Assembly: GCA_018304165.1 (NCBI GenBank)
Contig: JAGVWS010000026.1
Coordinates: forward strand, 1-32,159
Length of the DNA stretch: 32,159 bases
From: Candidatus Pacearchaeota archaeon
Lineage (GTDB): Archaea > Nanobdellota > Nanobdellia > Pacearchaeales > GW2011-AR1
Direction of reading: 5' to 3'
Position 1 is the first letter of the stretch, and every line of letters begins with the position of its first letter. The notes beneath the pieces were generated by a model. That model saw only the letters and a list, made by a program, of their open reading frames with translations, had not been told where the DNA came from and did not search any database. Of this stretch, positions 830 through 12,171 are shown in pieces. Position numbers and translations under genes: made by a program.

Positions 830-853
830 AAATTCTTGAGTGTAATAATGCTT

Positions 854-1035
854 GGTGATTAGACAATAATTGCACCAATAAATTACCTCAGAACCAATAA
901 TAATTAACTGATAACCTGTAAAACACTGCTCTAAGCTGCATGTAAGTGTCTGGCATATTAATTGATATTAAGAGGGTTATTTATAATGAGCATAAAGTCT
1001 ATTGATAATAGTTATATTAAAGGTTAGTGTGGATT
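854..1035 (+). repeat. Copy A of ~185-bp dispersed intergenic repeat (inverted copy at 9250-9433)
   Basis: ggtgattagacaataattgcaccaataaattacctcagaaccaa... aligns along its length with the reverse complement of 9250-9433. Confidence 0.9.
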
Positions 1036-1059: not shown

Positions 1060-3387
1060 TTATTTTTCTTCCCTCTCCGTTTCCGTTTCACGCTCTTTTT
1101 CGTATTCCTTCTGCCGCTGCTCCTGCTCCTTTCTTGACGGGCATTTGGGATTGAAGCAGAACTCCCATGGCCTTCGGCCTTTCTTGAGCAGGAGAAGCTT
1201 CTGCCAGCTGCACTTTTCGCATAGTTTGCCGTCAATTTTTTTAACAAATCCCGCTGGCAGGCCGAAAGTAGTTCTGCAGTCGGGGTATTTATTGCAGGCA
1301 ACGAATGATTTATTAAAACGCTTGCTGAAGAGAATATGCAGATTTCCTTCATTGCAGGCAGGGCATTTGTTGAGGGTGTTTTCAATTTTTTCCTGCTGCC
1401 TTAAATTGTTGAGGGCATCAAGAAGCTCTTTGCCTATTTTTGCTTCTGATTTGCGGAATTCTTTTTCTATTTTGAGAATGACTTTCTTTGCCTTTTCAAT
1501 AATATTTTCTTCTTTTTTCTCAAGGTCTTTCTTTGCTTTCCGGATGGATTCCATTTCCTTCTCAAACTCCCTTGTAAGCTTCTCATCAATTATTATCGGA
1601 GAATATTTTTCCAGAGAGCTTATTAGAGAGATTCCTATTGGAGTGGCTTCAATGCTGCGCTCCTTAATATATCCGCGGTTGTAAAGAGTTTCAATAATCG
1701 CTGCGCGGGTAGCTTTTGTGCCGAGCTGTTTTCGTTCTAATTCTGAAACTAGCGACGCTGGAGAGTAACGCTTTGGCGGCTGGGTTTGTTTTTCCTCAAT
1801 GCGCATTTCAAGGATTTCTACATCGCCGTTGACTTCTGGAATTTCCTTCTCGCTTAACCTGATTGGATAGACTTCCATCCATCCTTTTTTCTTTATATGC
1901 AAGCCTTTAGCCTGAAATGATAAACCGTTAATAACAACTTCAACTTTTCTGTTTAGAACGAGTGCATTATCACACATTGAGGCCAAAAAACGGCGGGCAA
2001 TTAACTCATAAATTTTTGAATCCTCAGCAGAGAGATTTCCCGGAATTTCGCCAGTAGGATGAATGGCGGGGTGAGCTGGGTCGGATTTAGAGCCTTCAAT
2101 TGGGTGCTTTCTTGTCACTAATGATGATTCTTTTCTGAATTTTTTTGATAATTTCTTAACAATACCAAGAACGTCAATGCCGGGTGGAATTTTCTGAGAG
2201 GATGTTCGCGGATAGCTGATTAATCCGGACAGGTACAGCCTTTGGGCTGTCTGGAGGGTTTGAGAGGGAGTAATGCCGTAGAATTTGTAAGATTCTGTCT
2301 GCAGGGTTGTGAGGTCAAATACGGGGAGAGGGGGGATTGTCTGGTCAGTTGAAGTAGTTTCGGCGCTCGCTCGCTTATTCCTGATAATTTCAAACTGCTT
2401 GAGTTCTGAGCTTTTTTTTATATCCTTTACATATTTTAATTCTATTTTTTCATTGTTCCATTCAATTATTATAAATACCTGCCAGAAAGGCTCAGGCTTG
2501 AAGGATTTGATGGCAAGCTCTTTCTTTACAACGAGGTTTAGAGTAGGCCCCTGAACTCTGCCTATTGACATGATGCGAAAGTTGCCTGCCTTTCTTATAG
2601 CTTCCATCAAAGCGCGCGAAAGATTAATTCCATACAGCCAGTCTAAGTGATGCCTTGTTTCTCCTGCTACAGCAAGACCCCAGTCAAGGGTTGGGGAGAT
2701 ATTAGTGTAAGCTTTTTCAATTTCATCTTTTGTCAAAGAAGAAAATTTCATCCTCTTCGCGTCGCTTTCACCGCAAAGAAAACGAATGATATTCCATCCG
2801 ATAACTTCGCCTTCAACATCAAGATCCGTAGCTATGACATATGACTTTGCCTTTGCTGCAAGCTTCCTTAAAGTGAAGTAGTATTTCTTCGTAAACTCGG
2901 CGCCCTTGCGTGAATAAGAAGGAACCCATTCTAAGTTGAATATTGGCCATCCTCTTTCCCCCTCTTTTTGCTGCAAGCCGTAGAGATGCCCGACGGCGCA
3001 GGCAACGACAATTTTTTCATTGTTTTTCTGGACTTCGTAATAGTATACTCCTCCGGGCAGGTTGAACTTCCTGATTTTGCCTTCAACTCCCAGCCCTTCT
3101 GCTATTTTAGTTGCAGCCTGGGGCTTTTCAGTTATAATAAGAATATATTCTCCTTTTCCAATTTTCTTAACTGGAGGTTCTCTTTCAGCTTTTTCTTTGA
3201 TTGTTTTTTCTCTGGATTCTCTGGATTTCCATTCTGTTCCCTTATAACTTCCTGGAATTATCCTGCCCTGCCTTTCTATTTTCTCAACAGCTAATTTTGG
3301 CTTTTCAGGTATGGTGAGAGCATGCTTGACTGAAGTTTCATCCAAAGGAACGTAACCATTACCATCAGACTTTTTACGAGGAGGCAT
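1060..3387 (-). CDS. topA: DNA topoisomerase I (type IA) with C-terminal zinc-finger motifs
   Basis: Toprim region (YILIITEKPQAATKIAEGLG, DLDVEGEVIGWNIIRF), active-site region LISYPRTSSQKIP, C-terminal CPACNEGN..CNKYPDCRTTFGLP and CEKCSW fingers. Confidence 0.95.
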   Translation of the reverse strand: MPPRKKSDGNGYVPLDETSVKHALTIPEKPKLAVEKIERQGRIIPGSYKGTEWKSRESREKTIKEKAEREPPVKKIGKGEYILIITEKPQAATKIAEGLGVEGKIRKFNLPGGVYYYEVQKNNEKIVVACAVGHLYGLQQKEGERGWPIFNLEWVPSYSRKGAEFTKKYYFTLRKLAAKAKSYVIATDLDVEGEVIGWNIIRFLCGESDAKRMKFSSLTKDEIEKAYTNISPTLDWGLAVAGETRHHLDWLYGINLSRALMEAIRKAGNFRIMSIGRVQGPTLNLVVKKELAIKSFKPEPFWQVFIIIEWNNEKIELKYVKDIKKSSELKQFEIIRNKRASAETTSTDQTIPPLPVFDLTTLQTESYKFYGITPSQTLQTAQRLYLSGLISYPRTSSQKIPPGIDVLGIVKKLSKKFRKESSLVTRKHPIEGSKSDPAHPAIHPTGEIPGNLSAEDSKIYELIARRFLASMCDNALVLNRKVEVVINGLSFQAKGLHIKKKGWMEVYPIRLSEKEIPEVNGDVEILEMRIEEKQTQPPKRYSPASLVSELERKQLGTKATRAAIIETLYNRGYIKERSIEATPIGISLISSLEKYSPIIIDEKLTREFEKEMESIRKAKKDLEKKEENIIEKAKKVILKIEKEFRKSEAKIGKELLDALNNLRQQEKIENTLNKCPACNEGNLHILFSKRFNKSFVACNKYPDCRTTFGLPAGFVKKIDGKLCEKCSWQKLLLLKKGRRPWEFCFNPKCPSRKEQEQRQKEYEKERETETEREEK

Positions 3388-3650
3388 AAAAAACGAGAGG
3401 AAGGATAGTTTATTAGTGTTGCGGCTTTGTTTAAAAAGTGCTTGAATATCATCTCTGATAAATTAAATTATAGCTGATAAAAATTAGCATTAGAATTAAA
3501 TCTCAGTTAATTATATAATCTTGATATAACAAATGGTGATGTTATTGACGATGACAATGGGTGTATTGCTGAATTAGATCTGTACCATAATGCTCTAGTT
3601 GTTAGCTCGCTTTCTAAACAGACTGCGTTTGTTCAGCAAAGGTTAATGTG

Positions 3651-3772
3651 AGTATCTCCGATGAGTATTTATCACTAAAGAATAAATAGTCAATATTTAT
3701 ACATAACTAATCATTAATATAGTATTATATCAACAATATCACTCATCGGACTATATAAATATCAGAGATACT
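3651..3772. repeat. Long interrupted inverted repeat in intergenic region
   Basis: AGTATCTCCGATGAGT (3651-3666) versus ACTCATCGGA (3741-3750) and GAGATACT (3765-3772); the two 3' arms are separated by a 14-nt insertion. Confidence 0.7.
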
Positions 3773-3889
3773 ATAATGTTGCGGAAGTTATTTAAATAAT
3801 CAAAGGTTACAATAAGCACGGGGATTAATAGTGATTAATACTTTAATATTTGAATCATTGAAAGGAGGTGTTGAAATACAATCGTAAAA

Positions 3890-4279
3890 ATGGCTGATGG
3901 AAAAAGCGTGCCCACTTTAGTTAAAGTGATTGCTGTGCTCTACTATATTGGGGCTGTTCTCTTTGTTCTCGCAGGAATCATGATGATTGCCGGCGCAGGA
4001 GCAACTGGATTAATGGCTTTCATGCCTTTCTATTCCATATTTGGGGCAGGGCTCCTGATTATTGGAGCGATAATCTTCATAGCTGTAGGAGTGCTGGAGT
4101 TCTTTGTAGGAAGAGGGTTATGGCAGGGAAGGAACTGGGCCAGAATAACTGCGATAGTTCTTGCTGTTTTAGGTTTGATATCGGCTCTTATAAGCTTCTC
4201 AATATTGAGCATAATCATTGATGCTCTGATAGCAGGATATCTGCTCTTCAGCAAAGATGTGAAAGCGGCGTTTGCTTAA
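3890..4279 (+). CDS. Small integral membrane protein, function unknown
   Basis: Continuous ORF with about four hydrophobic segments; terminator-like palindrome at its stop codon. Confidence 0.7.
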   Translation: MADGKSVPTLVKVIAVLYYIGAVLFVLAGIMMIAGAGATGLMAFMPFYSIFGAGLLIIGAIIFIAVGVLEFFVGRGLWQGRNWARITAIVLAVLGLISALISFSILSIIIDALIAGYLLFSKDVKAAFA

Positions 4280-4322: not shown

Positions 4323-5204
4323 TTATTTTTCAGATTTTCTCCTGTGCCTTTCTATGTTTTTAAGCTCCTCAATCCTTCTGTTTGCATCAATTGAGCTTGA
4401 GAACATCTTCCAGAATATTTTTGTGAGCCATTCAATCCATTCTTTGTCATAAATTGTATAGAAGACGAAAGTGATGTCTTTAAGCTCGCCCTCCCTTCCA
4501 GTAGGCAAAAAGATCTCCTTCATATTGAAGAATTGATTATCAACAATAGTAGTCCTCAATGGCTGGTCACGATGCCTGATTTCGACGAGCTCCTTGCCGT
4601 ACTTCTTGTTAAGAGAAAGAAGCTTTTCAATATTGCCAATGCCTGCCAGATCAACTCTGCAGACTGCTTTAATACTGATGCCTTTCTTTACCATGCCATC
4701 AATGACTTTGAAAATATCTGTTTTCCTGTCGCGGTATTGTGTGAAGGAAAGATTTCCGGAAAAAAGAATAAGCTGCTTCTTAACTTTGAGAAGCATATTG
4801 GCAAGGTTGTCAAGCTTTCCTATGAAGACTTCATCCTTTCCTGACTGCATCCAAACTTCTTTCTTCTTATTATCAACGTGCTGGAAGATATCAAAAGAAG
4901 AAAACTCTTCCTTGCCCTTCCTTAACAGGAGCTCATTTTCAAGGCTCTCCTGAAAAACTGAATGGCTTGCTTTTTCAATACTAGCCCAGTAAACAATCTT
5001 CAGTGCGCCTCTCGTGCCTCCGCGAAAGGTGCGGGTGGCAATGGTTCCATAGTTCCTGGAGATGTCATCAACATATCTGTCTGCCGTGCGCCAGTTCTTA
5101 TTTATTTTTTCTGCTATCTCCTGAATGCTTCTCGGCTTGGAATATACAAATTTCTCAATCTCTCTTACAACCTCATTAGTAAGCATGAACATACCAATAA
5201 TCAC
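4323..5204 (-). CDS. Winged-HTH transcriptional regulator-like protein with C-terminal PLD/TrmB-like sensor region
   Basis: N-terminal EIEKFVYSKPRSIQEIAEKINKNWRTADRYVDDI reads as HTH; C-terminal region resembles PLD-like/TrmB C-terminal domains (weaker). Confidence 0.6.
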   Translation of the reverse strand: MIIGMFMLTNEVVREIEKFVYSKPRSIQEIAEKINKNWRTADRYVDDISRNYGTIATRTFRGGTRGALKIVYWASIEKASHSVFQESLENELLLRKGKEEFSSFDIFQHVDNKKKEVWMQSGKDEVFIGKLDNLANMLLKVKKQLILFSGNLSFTQYRDRKTDIFKVIDGMVKKGISIKAVCRVDLAGIGNIEKLLSLNKKYGKELVEIRHRDQPLRTTIVDNQFFNMKEIFLPTGREGELKDITFVFYTIYDKEWIEWLTKIFWKMFSSSIDANRRIEELKNIERHRRKSEK

Positions 5205-5493
5205 TGTTATTTAAGCATTTTTGTTGTGTACAACACTATTGACAAAAATTGTACAGAAATATGTAAATAAAATACAAGTCTAGAGAAGATTATGATTTTG
5301 ATAAAAAAAGATGGCAGAGATTTGTATGGCCGTTCTAATAATTTTTCTGAAATTGAAGGTTATAATAAAAATTCTTTCTTTAATATACCACCGTTTGTAT
5401 TTTTTATGTATCAATTGAAAAATAGTCATGAGCTTTTGCAAATATGCTATGAAAAACGAATAAATTTAAATAGGAGCAAAATGGTTGTTAAAA

Positions 5494-6447
5494 ATGCTGA
5501 ATGAGGTGGTGGTGAATCTTCGTGATGAAAGTCTTATAGAAGCCGCAGGAGCAGTTATTGACGCAGCAATTACTCCAAGAAACAGAATATCTACACTATT
5601 TCCGGAAGTTGATGAAGCATATAGGCCTGCAAATCTGTGGAGAGATGTTTTAGAAATGCTTGACCAGGGAAGAAGCTTATACTCGCGGTTCCAAAAAGCC
5701 GATAGTAATGGCAGGGTAAGAGATATTTCTGTTCCCCAGGCCGCATTCCTGGAATTTGTCAATCGTTGTTTAATCCCTTTGGTTAAGTCTGTGCCTTCGC
5801 ATCCAGCAAGCCATGGAATTGAGAAAGGATGGAGCGCTGAAAGAAGCGTGAAAACTCACGTGCCGATAAGAACAGCGTTCTCAATGGATATAAGTGATGC
5901 TATTCCAGGAGTGGGGATTGACAAGGTGTATGATTTTTATTATGCTCTTCTGGAAGATTCAAAATTTGGGCTGACCGAGAGAGAAAGAGCCGGAGTTGCC
6001 GGAAACCTGGCATATCTATCAACAGTTCATTATGCTAGCAGAGGGACAAGAGGATTAGCTGTTGGTTCAGGATTATCAAATACTTTATTCAACAAATTAT
6101 TCATGGGAATTGATGTGGCTATACAAGAAGGATGCAATAGAAGAGGATTCAGATACAGCAGGTACTTGGACGATGTTACTGTAACATCAGAAGGAGATGA
6201 GTCCAATGAAGCGTTCTTGGGAATTCATCCAGTAGTTGCCGCGCATGGCTTCAGAATTTCTCCAAGAAAAACATTTGTTCAAAAAGCAAGCGAAGGGGAT
6301 ATTTACTTGCTTGGCCAGGTAGTAGTTAATGGGCGAGCGGTGATGAAGAACTCCAGAGAAATTAGAGAAGCCAATAAGAAAGGAAGATTAGAGCCGGAAT
6401 ACATTGAAAGGGTATTGAGCTCTGGGGATTACTCTCGGTGGATTTAG
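5494..6447 (+). CDS. Reverse transcriptase, divergent retron-like/unclassified group
   Basis: RT motif series: SNGRVRDISVPQAAFLEFVNRCLIPLV; SHGIEKGWSAERSVKTHV; AFSMDISDAIPGV (motif A Asp); RGLAVGSGLSNTLFNKLFMGID; FRYSRYLDDVTVTSEG (YLDD); HGFRISPRKTFVQKA; LLGQVVVNG. TATA-like TTTAAATA about 25 nt before ATG 5494; the ORF track starts at TTG 5485. Confidence 0.85.
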   Translation: MLNEVVVNLRDESLIEAAGAVIDAAITPRNRISTLFPEVDEAYRPANLWRDVLEMLDQGRSLYSRFQKADSNGRVRDISVPQAAFLEFVNRCLIPLVKSVPSHPASHGIEKGWSAERSVKTHVPIRTAFSMDISDAIPGVGIDKVYDFYYALLEDSKFGLTERERAGVAGNLAYLSTVHYASRGTRGLAVGSGLSNTLFNKLFMGIDVAIQEGCNRRGFRYSRYLDDVTVTSEGDESNEAFLGIHPVVAAHGFRISPRKTFVQKASEGDIYLLGQVVVNGRAVMKNSREIREANKKGRLEPEYIERVLSSGDYSRWI

Positions 6448-6452
6448 ATTTT

Positions 6453-6647
6453 CAAACATCAATTATCATTCCTTTTCTTCCGACATTTTAGTCAAACATC
6501 AATTATCATTCCTTTTCTTCCAACATTTTAGTCAAACATCAATTATCATTCCTTTTCTTCCGACATTTTAGTCAAACATCAATTATCATTCCTTTTCTTC
6601 CGACATTTTAGTCAAACATCAATTATCATTCCTTTTCTTCCAACGTT
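6453..6647. repeat. Tandem array of 40-bp repeats; the last copy is the 3' end of the metallophosphoesterase gene
   Basis: caaacatcaattatcattccttttcttccRacattttagt starts at 6453, 6493, 6533, 6573, 6613; the final copy decodes on the minus strand as NVGRKGMIIDV*. Confidence 0.97.
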
Positions 6648-7223
6648 AATCGCGCGGGAGCTTCCTATTATGTCATACATGCCGGCAGCTTCATGGATGT
6701 GGCTGAACAATGCCAGGTCAGGCTGGAATTTTTCAATGGCTTTTCTTATGGCGCGGCTGCCTTCAAATCCAAATGATTCTGACATAGTACCACGGGGATG
6801 AAGGTGAGTGACCATTACTTTCTTTGAGAATTTTCTCTTTGAGTTAAGAAGAGCCCTGTGGGAATCGTTCAAAAGCTTTTCTATCTCGCTCTCTGAAAGG
6901 ATGTTTGGACCGATATTTGCCCCGCCGGCTCCGAAGAATCCTAAACCATAATGTATGACATAAGAGCCATGAATGTTCTTTGAGTTGCTGTAGAGCTGTT
7001 CAAGGAAGTTAATGGCTGCATTGCTTTCGTGATTTCCAGGAACCATCAGGACTTTGATTCCGTGCCTGGCAAAGGGCCCTATAATTCCTTCTGTCAAAAA
7101 TTCTGTATGGGTTAAGTCTCCTGTGATCACAACTAAATCCACTTTTTCTTTCTTGGCACGCTCAGCCAGCTCGCGCGCTTTTCTTTTGTCGCTGTGAATG
7201 TCGCCAAAGGCCAGGATTTTCAT
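6612..7223 (-). CDS. Metallophosphoesterase (calcineurin-like)
   Basis: MKILAFGDIHSD..., VVITGDLTH, VPGNHES, VTHLHPRG, LFSHIHE motifs; likely start at internal Met (7223). Confidence 0.9.
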   Translation of the reverse strand: MKILAFGDIHSDKRKARELAERAKKEKVDLVVITGDLTHTEFLTEGIIGPFARHGIKVLMVPGNHESNAAINFLEQLYSNSKNIHGSYVIHYGLGFFGAGGANIGPNILSESEIEKLLNDSHRALLNSKRKFSKKVMVTHLHPRGTMSESFGFEGSRAIRKAIEKFQPDLALFSHIHEAAGMYDIIGSSRAINVGRKGMIIDV

Positions 7224-7300
7224 AGAAATCATCTGTATAGATTTGCTTATAAACTTAGCTTTCATCCTCCCAAAATTCCAGTAGCAAACCTTTAAATATA

Positions 7301-7319
7301 ATACGTACTTAATACGTAT
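7301..7319. promoter_or_regulatory. Candidate operator: inverted repeat ATACGT-N7-ACGTAT immediately before start codon
   Basis: TATA-like TTTAAATATA upstream; IR ends directly at ATG 7320. Confidence 0.5.
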
Positions 7320-8087
7320 ATGAAGTTTATACATAGAGTTTCAAAGGGAAGCAGGTTCAATCAGATATATGTGCCTGCAGAAATGAGAATGACATTTGAA
7401 GTCGGGGATTTGGTTGAAGTGCGTTTAATAGAGAAAAAATCCCGTGTTTATTATTCTGAGAATATTAAAGACTTGGGAGATTTTAAGAGAAAGATAATTG
7501 AAGAGATATTCTCTGTAATAAAGGACTTTAATAACATTGAGCAGGCTTTTATTGTTGGTTCTTTTTTAACCAGCAGGGAGGATTATAATGATATTGATAT
7601 TATAATAGTCGGGAAAAATGCTGAAGAGGAAGTCTGTTCAGTTTTAACTGAAAAGCTGCAGCTTAAATTCCATATAATTGCTGTTTCTGAAGAGAAATTT
7701 GGGCGTCTGATAAAAGTTTGTCCTGTAACCCGGAGCATGCTTTATTATTATGCCTCAAATAAAAAATTTTCTCTTTCGCAAAATACAAGCTTGGATAAAA
7801 ATCATCTAAAATTCCTGTTAATGATGCCGGAAGATCTTTTAGAGATAAGAGTAAAATCACGAGCATATTATGACAGCATCAGAAGGCTGATTGCCATAGA
7901 ACTCTTTTTGTTAGAAAAGGATTCAGATCCTCTAAAGATAAATAAGGAGATAAGCAGGATATTGGGAAAGAGAGTCTTTTCTTACTTAAAAAGAGGAGAG
8001 GAGATTAGCGACGCAATGCTTAAGGAAGTAAGAGAAATTATCAGGTCCAAACTTGATAAAATAAATAATTTGATAGATGCAAAATGA
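7320..8087 (+). CDS. AbrB-like N-terminal domain fused to MNT-type nucleotidyltransferase domain
   Basis: N-terminal RVSKGSRFNQIYVPAEMRMTFEVGDLVEVRLI (AbrB/SpoVT-like) followed by FIVGSFLTSREDYNDIDIIIVG (GS...DxD nucleotidyltransferase signature). Confidence 0.75.
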   Translation: MKFIHRVSKGSRFNQIYVPAEMRMTFEVGDLVEVRLIEKKSRVYYSENIKDLGDFKRKIIEEIFSVIKDFNNIEQAFIVGSFLTSREDYNDIDIIIVGKNAEEEVCSVLTEKLQLKFHIIAVSEEKFGRLIKVCPVTRSMLYYYASNKKFSLSQNTSLDKNHLKFLLMMPEDLLEIRVKSRAYYDSIRRLIAIELFLLEKDSDPLKINKEISRILGKRVFSYLKRGEEISDAMLKEVREIIRSKLDKINNLIDAK

Positions 8088-8401
8088 GCAAGAAAAGTGA
8101 TATTAAAAAGATAGTGAATATCTTATCAAAAGCACTAAGGCATAAGATAGGAAGCATTGTCAATAAAAATGAGCTGTATGCATCAAAATATGCCAAGGAT
8201 GCAGAAATATTAATGCGTGAAGCAGAAAAAGTTTCTTTAAGAGAAAACTGGAATAATCATGATAAGATAAATATCAGAAAGAAACTGGAAAGAGAACTTG
8301 AAATTGAGCTTAAGAGAAAAGATTTTCTGGCTGATGAAAAATTCAGCTTAATGGAAAGGGAAATTGAATGGGCTATGAAAGTGATATTCTCTGAAATTTA
8401 G
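8084..8401 (+). CDS. Small charged helical protein, ATGA-overlapping partner of the nucleotidyltransferase
   Basis: 4-nt overlap with upstream ORF; continuous 105-aa ORF. Confidence 0.65.
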   Translation: MSKKSDIKKIVNILSKALRHKIGSIVNKNELYASKYAKDAEILMREAEKVSLRENWNNHDKINIRKKLERELEIELKRKDFLADEKFSLMEREIEWAMKVIFSEI

Positions 8402-9249: not shown

Positions 9250-9433
9250 CATTTCCGCACTAATTTTTAATATAACTATTATCAATAACCTTTATGCTCA
9301 TTATCAATAACCATCTTAACCTTAATTAGTATGTCAGATAATTGCATGCAGCTGAGAGCAGCGTTTTACAGCTTATTAGTTAATTATTCTTGGTTCTGAG
9401 GTAACTTATTGGTGCGATTATTGTCTAATCACC
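9250..9433 (-). repeat. Copy B of ~185-bp dispersed intergenic repeat (inverted relative to copy A)
   Basis: Reverse complement ggtgattagacaataatcgcaccaataagttacctcagaaccaagaataattaact... matches 854-1035. Confidence 0.9.
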
Positions 9434-9582
9434 AAAAAATAATTCCGTTAGTAATCTGAGAAAATCATCAATTAACGTAAATCCATCTCCATCAATTATA
9501 CATGACTAATTTTATGCTATAACCACTGAACATAGATCAGTAGTGTAGCGGATCATAACCAGCTTATTTTTTCTTAACAACT

Positions 9583-12045: not shown

Positions 12046-12171
12046 TGGTCCCGAGGGGATTTGAACCCCCGACACCTTGGTTTCTCGATTATTCACATAA
12101 TCATGAGCCCTCAAACTTTCACAAGTTTAAGGTTAAGAGCCAAGTGCTCTGCCAGGCTGAGCTACGGAACC
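12046..12171 (-). tRNA. tRNA-Lys(CTT) with ~52-nt intron at canonical position 37/38
   Basis: Reverse strand GGTTCCGTAGCTCAGCCTGGCAGAGCACTTGGCTCTTA-[intron]-ACCAAGGTGTCGGGGGTTCAAATCCCCTCGGGACCA; acceptor, D, anticodon and T stems can be drawn; no encoded CCA. Confidence 0.85.

What the first reader, a model, noticed from the sequence alone, without database searches (positions are those of the whole stretch)
5205..6660. Divergent reverse transcriptase in an archaeal genome next to a repeat array copied from the neighbouring gene's 3' end
The 318-residue ORF carries the RT motif series in order, with both catalytic positions intact (Asp in SMDISDAIP and YLDD). The HGIEKGWSAERS, GSGLSN and LLGQVVVNG blocks look more retron-like than group-II-intron-like, and there is no maturase or endonuclease domain. 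Its motif B (GLAVGSGLSN) is neither the usual QGxxxSP nor the DGR-type SQ form. Six bp after its stop codon begins a 40-bp tandem array whose sequence matches the last ~33 nt (with stop codon) of the convergent metallophosphoesterase gene. A solitary RT beside direct copies of a gene 3' end has the ingredients of an RT-templated system (diversification, retron-like or defence RT), but does not match any layout I know.
Basis: partly seen in the sequence, partly recalled or inferred. Interest (0 to 1): 0.85.

Follow-up and report, generated by a model that had tools for sequence, protein, structure and literature searches.

The report
Regulated archaeal reverse transcriptase in swap-slot
A tiny symbiotic-type archaeon carries a retron-lineage reverse transcriptase that is one of many interchangeable gene cargoes controlled by a single conserved regulator and DNA switch, while the neighbouring 40-bp repeat array is a private duplication that has nothing demonstrable to do with it.

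Summary
The reverse transcriptase (RT) is real: profile, fold and tree all put it nearest to retron RTs. The 40-bp array is also real, but it is a private tandem duplication of the metallophosphoesterase (MPE) gene's 3' end. It was found in no RT relative, at none of 22 other MPE genes and nowhere else in the genome, so the RT-plus-array idea fails. In 7 of 8 RT loci (window included) the RT operon is divergent from a conserved TrmB-like helix-turn-helix/PLD-fold gene (window 4323-5204). That regulator sits in 38 of 180 same-family genomes and faces a hypervariable operon: 141 cargo genes in 78 families over 38 loci. The shared promoter holds two direct repeats 44 bp apart, whatever the cargo; all 16 genomes with that element carry it beside this gene. 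In three relatives the RT starts 78-116 bp from the regulator's start, leaving no room for a retron msr-msd; the retron NAXXH and VTG motifs are also missing. Best reading: a solo RT without its own ncRNA, expressed on cue from a regulated cargo slot stocked with nucleotide kinases, radical SAM and CYTH enzymes, most likely for antiviral or stress response. Function is inferred, not shown.

The parts
4323..5204 (-). TrmB-like HTH + PLD-fold regulator gene, divergent from the RT operon (probable start ATG 5184-5186)
   Evidence: Best structural match TrmBL2 (3e-9), then PLD-fold proteins; model pLDDT 90; homologues in 38 of 180 same-family genomes and beside the RT in 7 of 8 RT loci
5229..5244 (+). 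Operator half-element A, TACAACACTATTGACA (exact consensus)
   Evidence: A/B pair at 43-45 bp in 27 of 44 regulator loci, 0 of 2200 shuffles; 16 of 16 genome-wide hits lie beside the regulator gene
5261..5272 (+). TATA-like stretch of the operon promoter (inferred)
   Evidence: Position between the two repeats, about 20-30 bp before the first ATG in many loci; inference
5273..5283 (+). Operator half-element B, TACAAGTCTAG, 44 bp after A
5292..5504 (+). Possible first cistron, 70-aa ORF overlapping the RT start; no recognised family
   Evidence: its RNA is no more structured than shuffles (z +1.0)
5485..6447 (+). Reverse transcriptase, 320 aa (317 aa from ATG 5494)
5887..5889 (+). Catalytic Asp of motif A
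   Evidence: Invariant in the alignment of 8 members
6052..6081 (+). Motif B, GLAVGSGLSN (divergent)
6163..6174 (+). Catalytic YLDD
   Evidence: DD kept in all six members that cover it
6452..6647 (.). Private 40-bp tandem array made from the MPE 3' end; not part of the conserved system
6612..7334 (-). Metallophosphoesterase gene, right-hand flank of the slot
   Evidence: Pfam Metallophos 7.9e-20; on the operon side in 17 of 41 loci
1060..3387 (-). DNA topoisomerase I-type gene (named from its sequence), left-hand flank of the slot
   Evidence: Behind the regulator in 17 of 41 loci

Best explanation
The RT is one cargo of a regulated, hypervariable gene slot of Nanoarchaeia (DPANN archaea). 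A TrmB-type HTH/PLD protein binds two direct repeats (TACAACnCTAT, 44 bp apart) in the shared promoter and controls both itself and the divergent operon. An unknown signal sensed through its PLD-fold domain switches the operon on, giving an mRNA with little or no leader. The RT then works as a solo enzyme without a dedicated ncRNA, making DNA on RNA that is not encoded beside it. Viral or cellular RNA is the likeliest template, and the likeliest purpose is antiviral or stress defence. Other genomes fill the same slot with nucleotide-kinase-like, radical SAM, CYTH and other enzymes. Shown: RT identity and catalytic residues, regulator linkage, shared promoter element, cargo variability, absence of retron hallmarks. 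Inferred: binding of the repeats by the regulator, direction of regulation, template, defence role. The 40-bp array is an unrelated slippage-type duplication.
For: Clade of RTs with 100/100 support, on the retron side of the tree; fold nearest retron RTs. Regulator divergent from the RT operon in 7 of 8 loci. Operator pair in 27 of 44 regulator loci against 0 of 2200 shuffles; 16 of 16 genome hits beside the regulator, reversed-pattern control 0. Cargo: 141 genes, 78 families, 59 in one locus only; 558 of 703 locus pairs share none. The RT label needs at least 4 changes on the regulator tree, 2 forced by well-supported branches. Cargo domains: AAA_28 in 21 of 100 proteins, radical SAM 14, CYTH 8, dNK 4; four viperin-like matches, over the radical SAM core and adjoining residues. 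In L105, L107 and L108 the RT starts 78-116 bp from the regulator start. No Rfam RNA other than tRNA near the RT loci.
Against: No experiment; the genomes are incomplete, mostly metagenome-assembled. No cargo is a firm, full-length member of a proven defence family apart from scattered single hits. The regulator could serve metabolism, as other TrmB proteins do. The operator pair was not found at this stringency in 17 of 44 loci, including the RT loci L106-L108, whose promoters look different. L007 has the RT but no regulator. The viperin-like matches do not cover whole proteins and so are weak.
Confidence: 0.5

Rival explanations
1. It is a true retron whose msr-msd RNA is hidden: encoded elsewhere in the genome, inside the RT mRNA, or (in the window) in the 200 nt of the supposed 70-aa ORF.
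For: RT sequence, fold and tree are closest to retron RTs. Retron effectors vary, as the cargo here does.
Against: No upstream room in L105, L107, L108; about 64 bp in L106. Window 5285-5493 is less structured than most shuffles (z +1.0). No Rfam hit. NAXXH absent in all 8, VTG replaced by LLG in all 6 that cover it (motif definitions PMC6868368).
Confidence: 0.2
2. It is a housekeeping or repair RT (comparable to group-II-like RTs used in break repair) induced by DNA damage through the HTH/PLD regulator.
For: No effector gene is constant. One cargo protein is a methylpurine-DNA glycosylase and others are nucleotide-kinase-like. A G2L4 RT structure appears among the fold matches.
Against: The RT is rare and patchy (4 of 180 same-family genomes at E 1e-3, one of them a different retron-type RT) and trades places with unrelated genes, which does not suit housekeeping.
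Confidence: 0.2
3. One reading: RT and 40-bp array form an RT-templated copying system.
For: Physical adjacency in this one genome.
Against: No array in the RT relatives scanned, none at 22 other MPE genes, single genomic site, no marked structure (z -1.8).
Confidence: 0.03
4. It is a diversity-generating retroelement.
For: DGR RTs are common in the same family, including the own genome (L149).
Against: The clade lies apart from DGR RTs (100/100 split). No template/variable repeat pair in the window. Motif B is not GxxxSQ except in L105.
Confidence: 0.02

Closest known systems
Retron reverse transcriptases (PADLOC RT types VI, II-A, III-A; structures Ec86, Ec78, Eco7, Eco8)
   Same: Palm/fingers fold, motif order, length about 300-370 aa, nearest by profile, fold and tree
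   Different: No NAXXH, no VTG, no msr-msd next to the gene, no constant effector; W/Y-x-DD instead of YADD; linked to a TrmB-like regulator
Solo defence RTs (UG/DRT and Abi groups)
   Same: A single RT gene with apparently no msr-msd; suspected defence role
   Different: Sequence is much closer to retron models: Drt2 2.9e-5 and Drt4 2.8e-4 against 1.6e-17 for the St85 retron model in the same library
TrmB/TrmBL2 family archaeal regulators
   Same: Winged HTH followed by a PLD-like fold
   Different: No Pfam TrmB match; single dedicated repeat pair beside its own gene; conserved FRxGTRGALKIVYW stretch; faces interchangeable cargo
Prokaryotic viperins with nucleotide kinases
   Same: Other loci of the slot hold radical SAM proteins and nucleotide-kinase-like proteins
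   Different: The match is centred on the radical SAM core and does not cover the whole protein; not firm viperins, and not in the RT loci

Membership tests
Reverse transcriptase (RVT_1) | Catalytic Asp triad in RT motifs A and C | tested here: met
   Motif A Asp invariant in 8; DD in all 6 that cover it; PF00078 8.3e-7, 0.2 bits under the gathering score alone, over it in the genome scan
Reverse transcriptase (RVT_1) | RT fold | tested here: met
   pTM 0.78 model, Foldseek 1.2e-13 to retron Ec86 RT
Retron | RT groups with retron RTs | tested here: met
   Profiles and tree; sister position with a long stem of 1.5 changes per site; group II and UG rows were not in the tree
Retron | NAXXH in region X | tested here: not met
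   SxxxH in 7 of 8, none NAXXH (definition PMC6868368)
Retron | VTG at start of region Y | tested here: not met
   LLG in all 6 that cover it
Retron | Structured msr-msd RNA beside the RT gene | tested here: not met
   78-116 bp upstream including the promoter in L105, L107, L108; RT stop overlaps MPE stop in L105
Retron | msDNA production | not testable with these tools
   Needs wet work
Diversity-generating retroelement | Template/variable repeat pair | tested here: not met
   Self-comparison of the window
Diversity-generating retroelement | RT groups with DGR RTs | tested here: not met
   100/100 split
Group II intron RT | Maturase/endonuclease domains | tested here: not met
   320 aa, RT domain only
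UG/DRT defence RT | Best match to a UG/DRT model | tested here: not met
   Retron models score far better
TrmB-type regulator (neighbour gene) | HTH plus PLD-like effector-binding fold | tested here: met
   Structure match to TrmBL2; Pfam TrmB not matched

The most novel reading that the evidence does not exclude
DPANN archaea own an inducible, single-operator 'cartridge' locus in which one sensor-regulator and one promoter drive interchangeable response genes, and one cartridge is a retron-lineage RT that has lost its dedicated RNA and copies foreign or cellular RNA directly as an antiviral act.
Probability: 0.3. Interest if true: 0.85.

Novelty: new variant of a known kind. Interest (0 to 1): 0.62.

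Why it matters
A 2026 survey of archaeal immunity found few known systems in many archaeal genomes, and its main text does not mention retrons or reverse transcriptases (PMC12988326). A fixed regulator plus operator facing ever-changing cargo gives a simple handle for finding unknown response genes in these small genomes: search for the 44-bp repeat pair. A retron-lineage RT without the retron RNA would also bear on how RTs with and without a dedicated template RNA arose from one another.

Tried and rejected
Array as att site, template or RT product: no copies at other MPE genes or elsewhere. DGR repeats: none. Upstream msr-msd in the window: not structured. A common partner protein for the RT: none; upstream ORFs differ (70 aa; FhuF-like in L006; 145 aa in L008; AAA_28 kinase in L106; none in L105, L107, L108). 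ORF70 against the FhuF-like ORF: no similarity. Viral scan with the single RT: no relatives; phages and plasmids give only distant RTs. Calling the c18 radical SAM proteins viperins: rejected because the match does not span the protein.

Full report
Observation. The ORF at 5485-6447 is a reverse transcriptase. Motifs A, B and C are in order and both catalytic sites are intact. Pfam RVT_1 scores 8.3e-7. Retron RT models of PADLOC reach 3.4e-21, the St85 retron model of NCBIfam 1.6e-17, against 2.9e-5 for Drt2 and 8.7e-5 for group II introns. The AlphaFold2 model from eight relatives has pTM 0.78, and its first 18 PDB matches are all from retrons. The array at 6452-6641 is also real: 40 bp, 4.8 copies, 98% matches, its last copy being the 3' end of the MPE gene.

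The array is not part of the system. The unit exists only here in the genome. None of 22 other MPE genes of the family shows copies of its own 3' end apart from one 14-nt match. RT relatives in L006, L007, L105, L106 and L107 have no such array at the RT; L008 ends inside the RT gene and L108 was not scanned. A recent tandem duplication of a gene end plus 10 bp is enough to explain it: the full repeat copies differ from one another by a single G/A site.

Relatives. Protein and profile searches found seven further members, all in Nanoarchaeia: L006 (Pacearchaeota Bin_285), L007 (RBG_13_36_9), L008 (CSMAG_2760, cut by the contig end), L105, L106, L107 and L108 (interrupted). Seven of the eight (L108 left out) were put in a tree and form one clade with 100/100 support beside retron RTs and away from DGR RTs. 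The other RTs examined in same-family genomes, including one in the own genome, are mostly DGR-type (GxxxSQ), with two ordinary retron-type RTs (L009, L109). Group II and UG RTs were not in the tree, so the exact sister group is open; profile scores favour retrons.

Neighbourhood. In window, L006, L008, L105, L106, L107 and L108 the RT gene or operon is divergent from one gene, window 4323-5204; in L008 that gene is split into two ORFs. Its predicted structure (pLDDT 90) matches TrmBL2 and then PLD-fold proteins. The gene occurs in 38 of 180 same-family genomes. In 41 loci compared, the same frame recurs: topoisomerase I behind it (17 loci), MPE convergent on the far side (17 loci), and between them a changing operon. 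In 38 loci with cargo there are 141 cargo genes in 78 families, 59 found in one locus only, and 558 of 703 locus pairs share nothing. On the regulator's tree the RT label needs at least four changes, so the RT has probably entered or left the slot more than once. L105 shows the minimal unit, regulator plus RT, with the RT and MPE stop codons overlapping.

The shared promoter. The roughly 100 bp between regulator and operon carry TACAACACTATTGACA and, 44 bp on, TACAACTCTAT, followed by a start codon close behind. The pair is present in 27 of 44 loci and in 0 of 2200 shuffles. Across 180 genomes with up to three mismatches it occurs 16 times, once per genome, each time beside the regulator gene, with zero hits for the reversed pattern (positions compared). 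In the window it is at 5229-5283. This points to an autoregulated switch. Binding and direction (repressor or activator) are inferred. L106-L108 and some others have a different-looking promoter.

What the RT lacks. Region X has SxxxH in seven of eight, never NAXXH, and region Y starts with LLG, not VTG (definitions in PMC6868368). In L105, L107 and L108 the RT starts 78-116 bp from the regulator's start, promoter included. Window 5285-5493 is no more structured than shuffles, and Rfam finds nothing but tRNAs in these loci. By its RT it is of retron descent; by hallmark features it is not a retron.

Cargo and likely role. Other cargoes: NadR/nucleoside-kinase-like P-loop proteins (AAA_28 in 21 of 100), radical SAM (14), CYTH (8), deoxynucleoside-kinase-like (4), HAD, methyltransferases, one DNA glycosylase, one integrase-family protein. 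Four radical SAM proteins have viperin models as best PADLOC match, but only over the core and adjoining residues. High turnover behind a fixed switch, with enzymes that act on nucleotides and nucleic acids, fits defence or stress response better than housekeeping. That step is inference, and I give it about even odds.

Novelty. The papers I searched do not describe this RT clade or this slot; the library is partial, so this is absence of evidence. I file it as a new variant of a known kind: a retron-lineage RT in a new regulated setting.

Noticed in passing
852-1033 (+) and 9254-9435 (-): A 182-bp intergenic element present in about 25 full or partial copies over the genome; no unusual RNA structure. 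MITE-like or another dispersed repeat.
   Followed up: partly
12046-12171 (-): tRNA found by Rfam over 126 bases (model length 71) but missed by ARAGORN, so probably intron-containing.
   Followed up: no
L055 (own genome C19), 3404-4222: A second copy of the HTH/PLD regulator in the same genome (57% identical) with only a 63-aa ORF in the slot position.
   Followed up: partly
L057: Regulator and MPE separated by about 330 bp with no cargo over 80 aa: an apparently empty slot.
   Followed up: no
L006 10794-11948: The RT is preceded by a FhuF-domain ORF (Pfam 3.5e-6) and other short ORFs, perhaps a broken siderophore-synthetase-like gene.
   Followed up: partly
L009 9628-11345: An ordinary retron-type RT (471 aa) in a Pacearchaeota-family genome with an overlapping ORF that looks like a GHKL-type ATPase (name from sequence only).
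   Followed up: no
G000:C17:7961-8614 (L149): The own genome also carries a DGR-type RT (GNLTSQ motif).
   Followed up: no
L041 412-1230, L077 8168-9040, L047 6693-7412, L070 7460-8122: Radical SAM cargo proteins whose best PADLOC models are viperins, the match centred on the radical SAM core.
   Followed up: partly
7320-8401 (+): Two overlapping ORFs that look like a nucleotidyltransferase plus small helical partner (MNT/HEPN-like pair) between MPE and the UPP-synthase-like gene; not tested.
   Followed up: no
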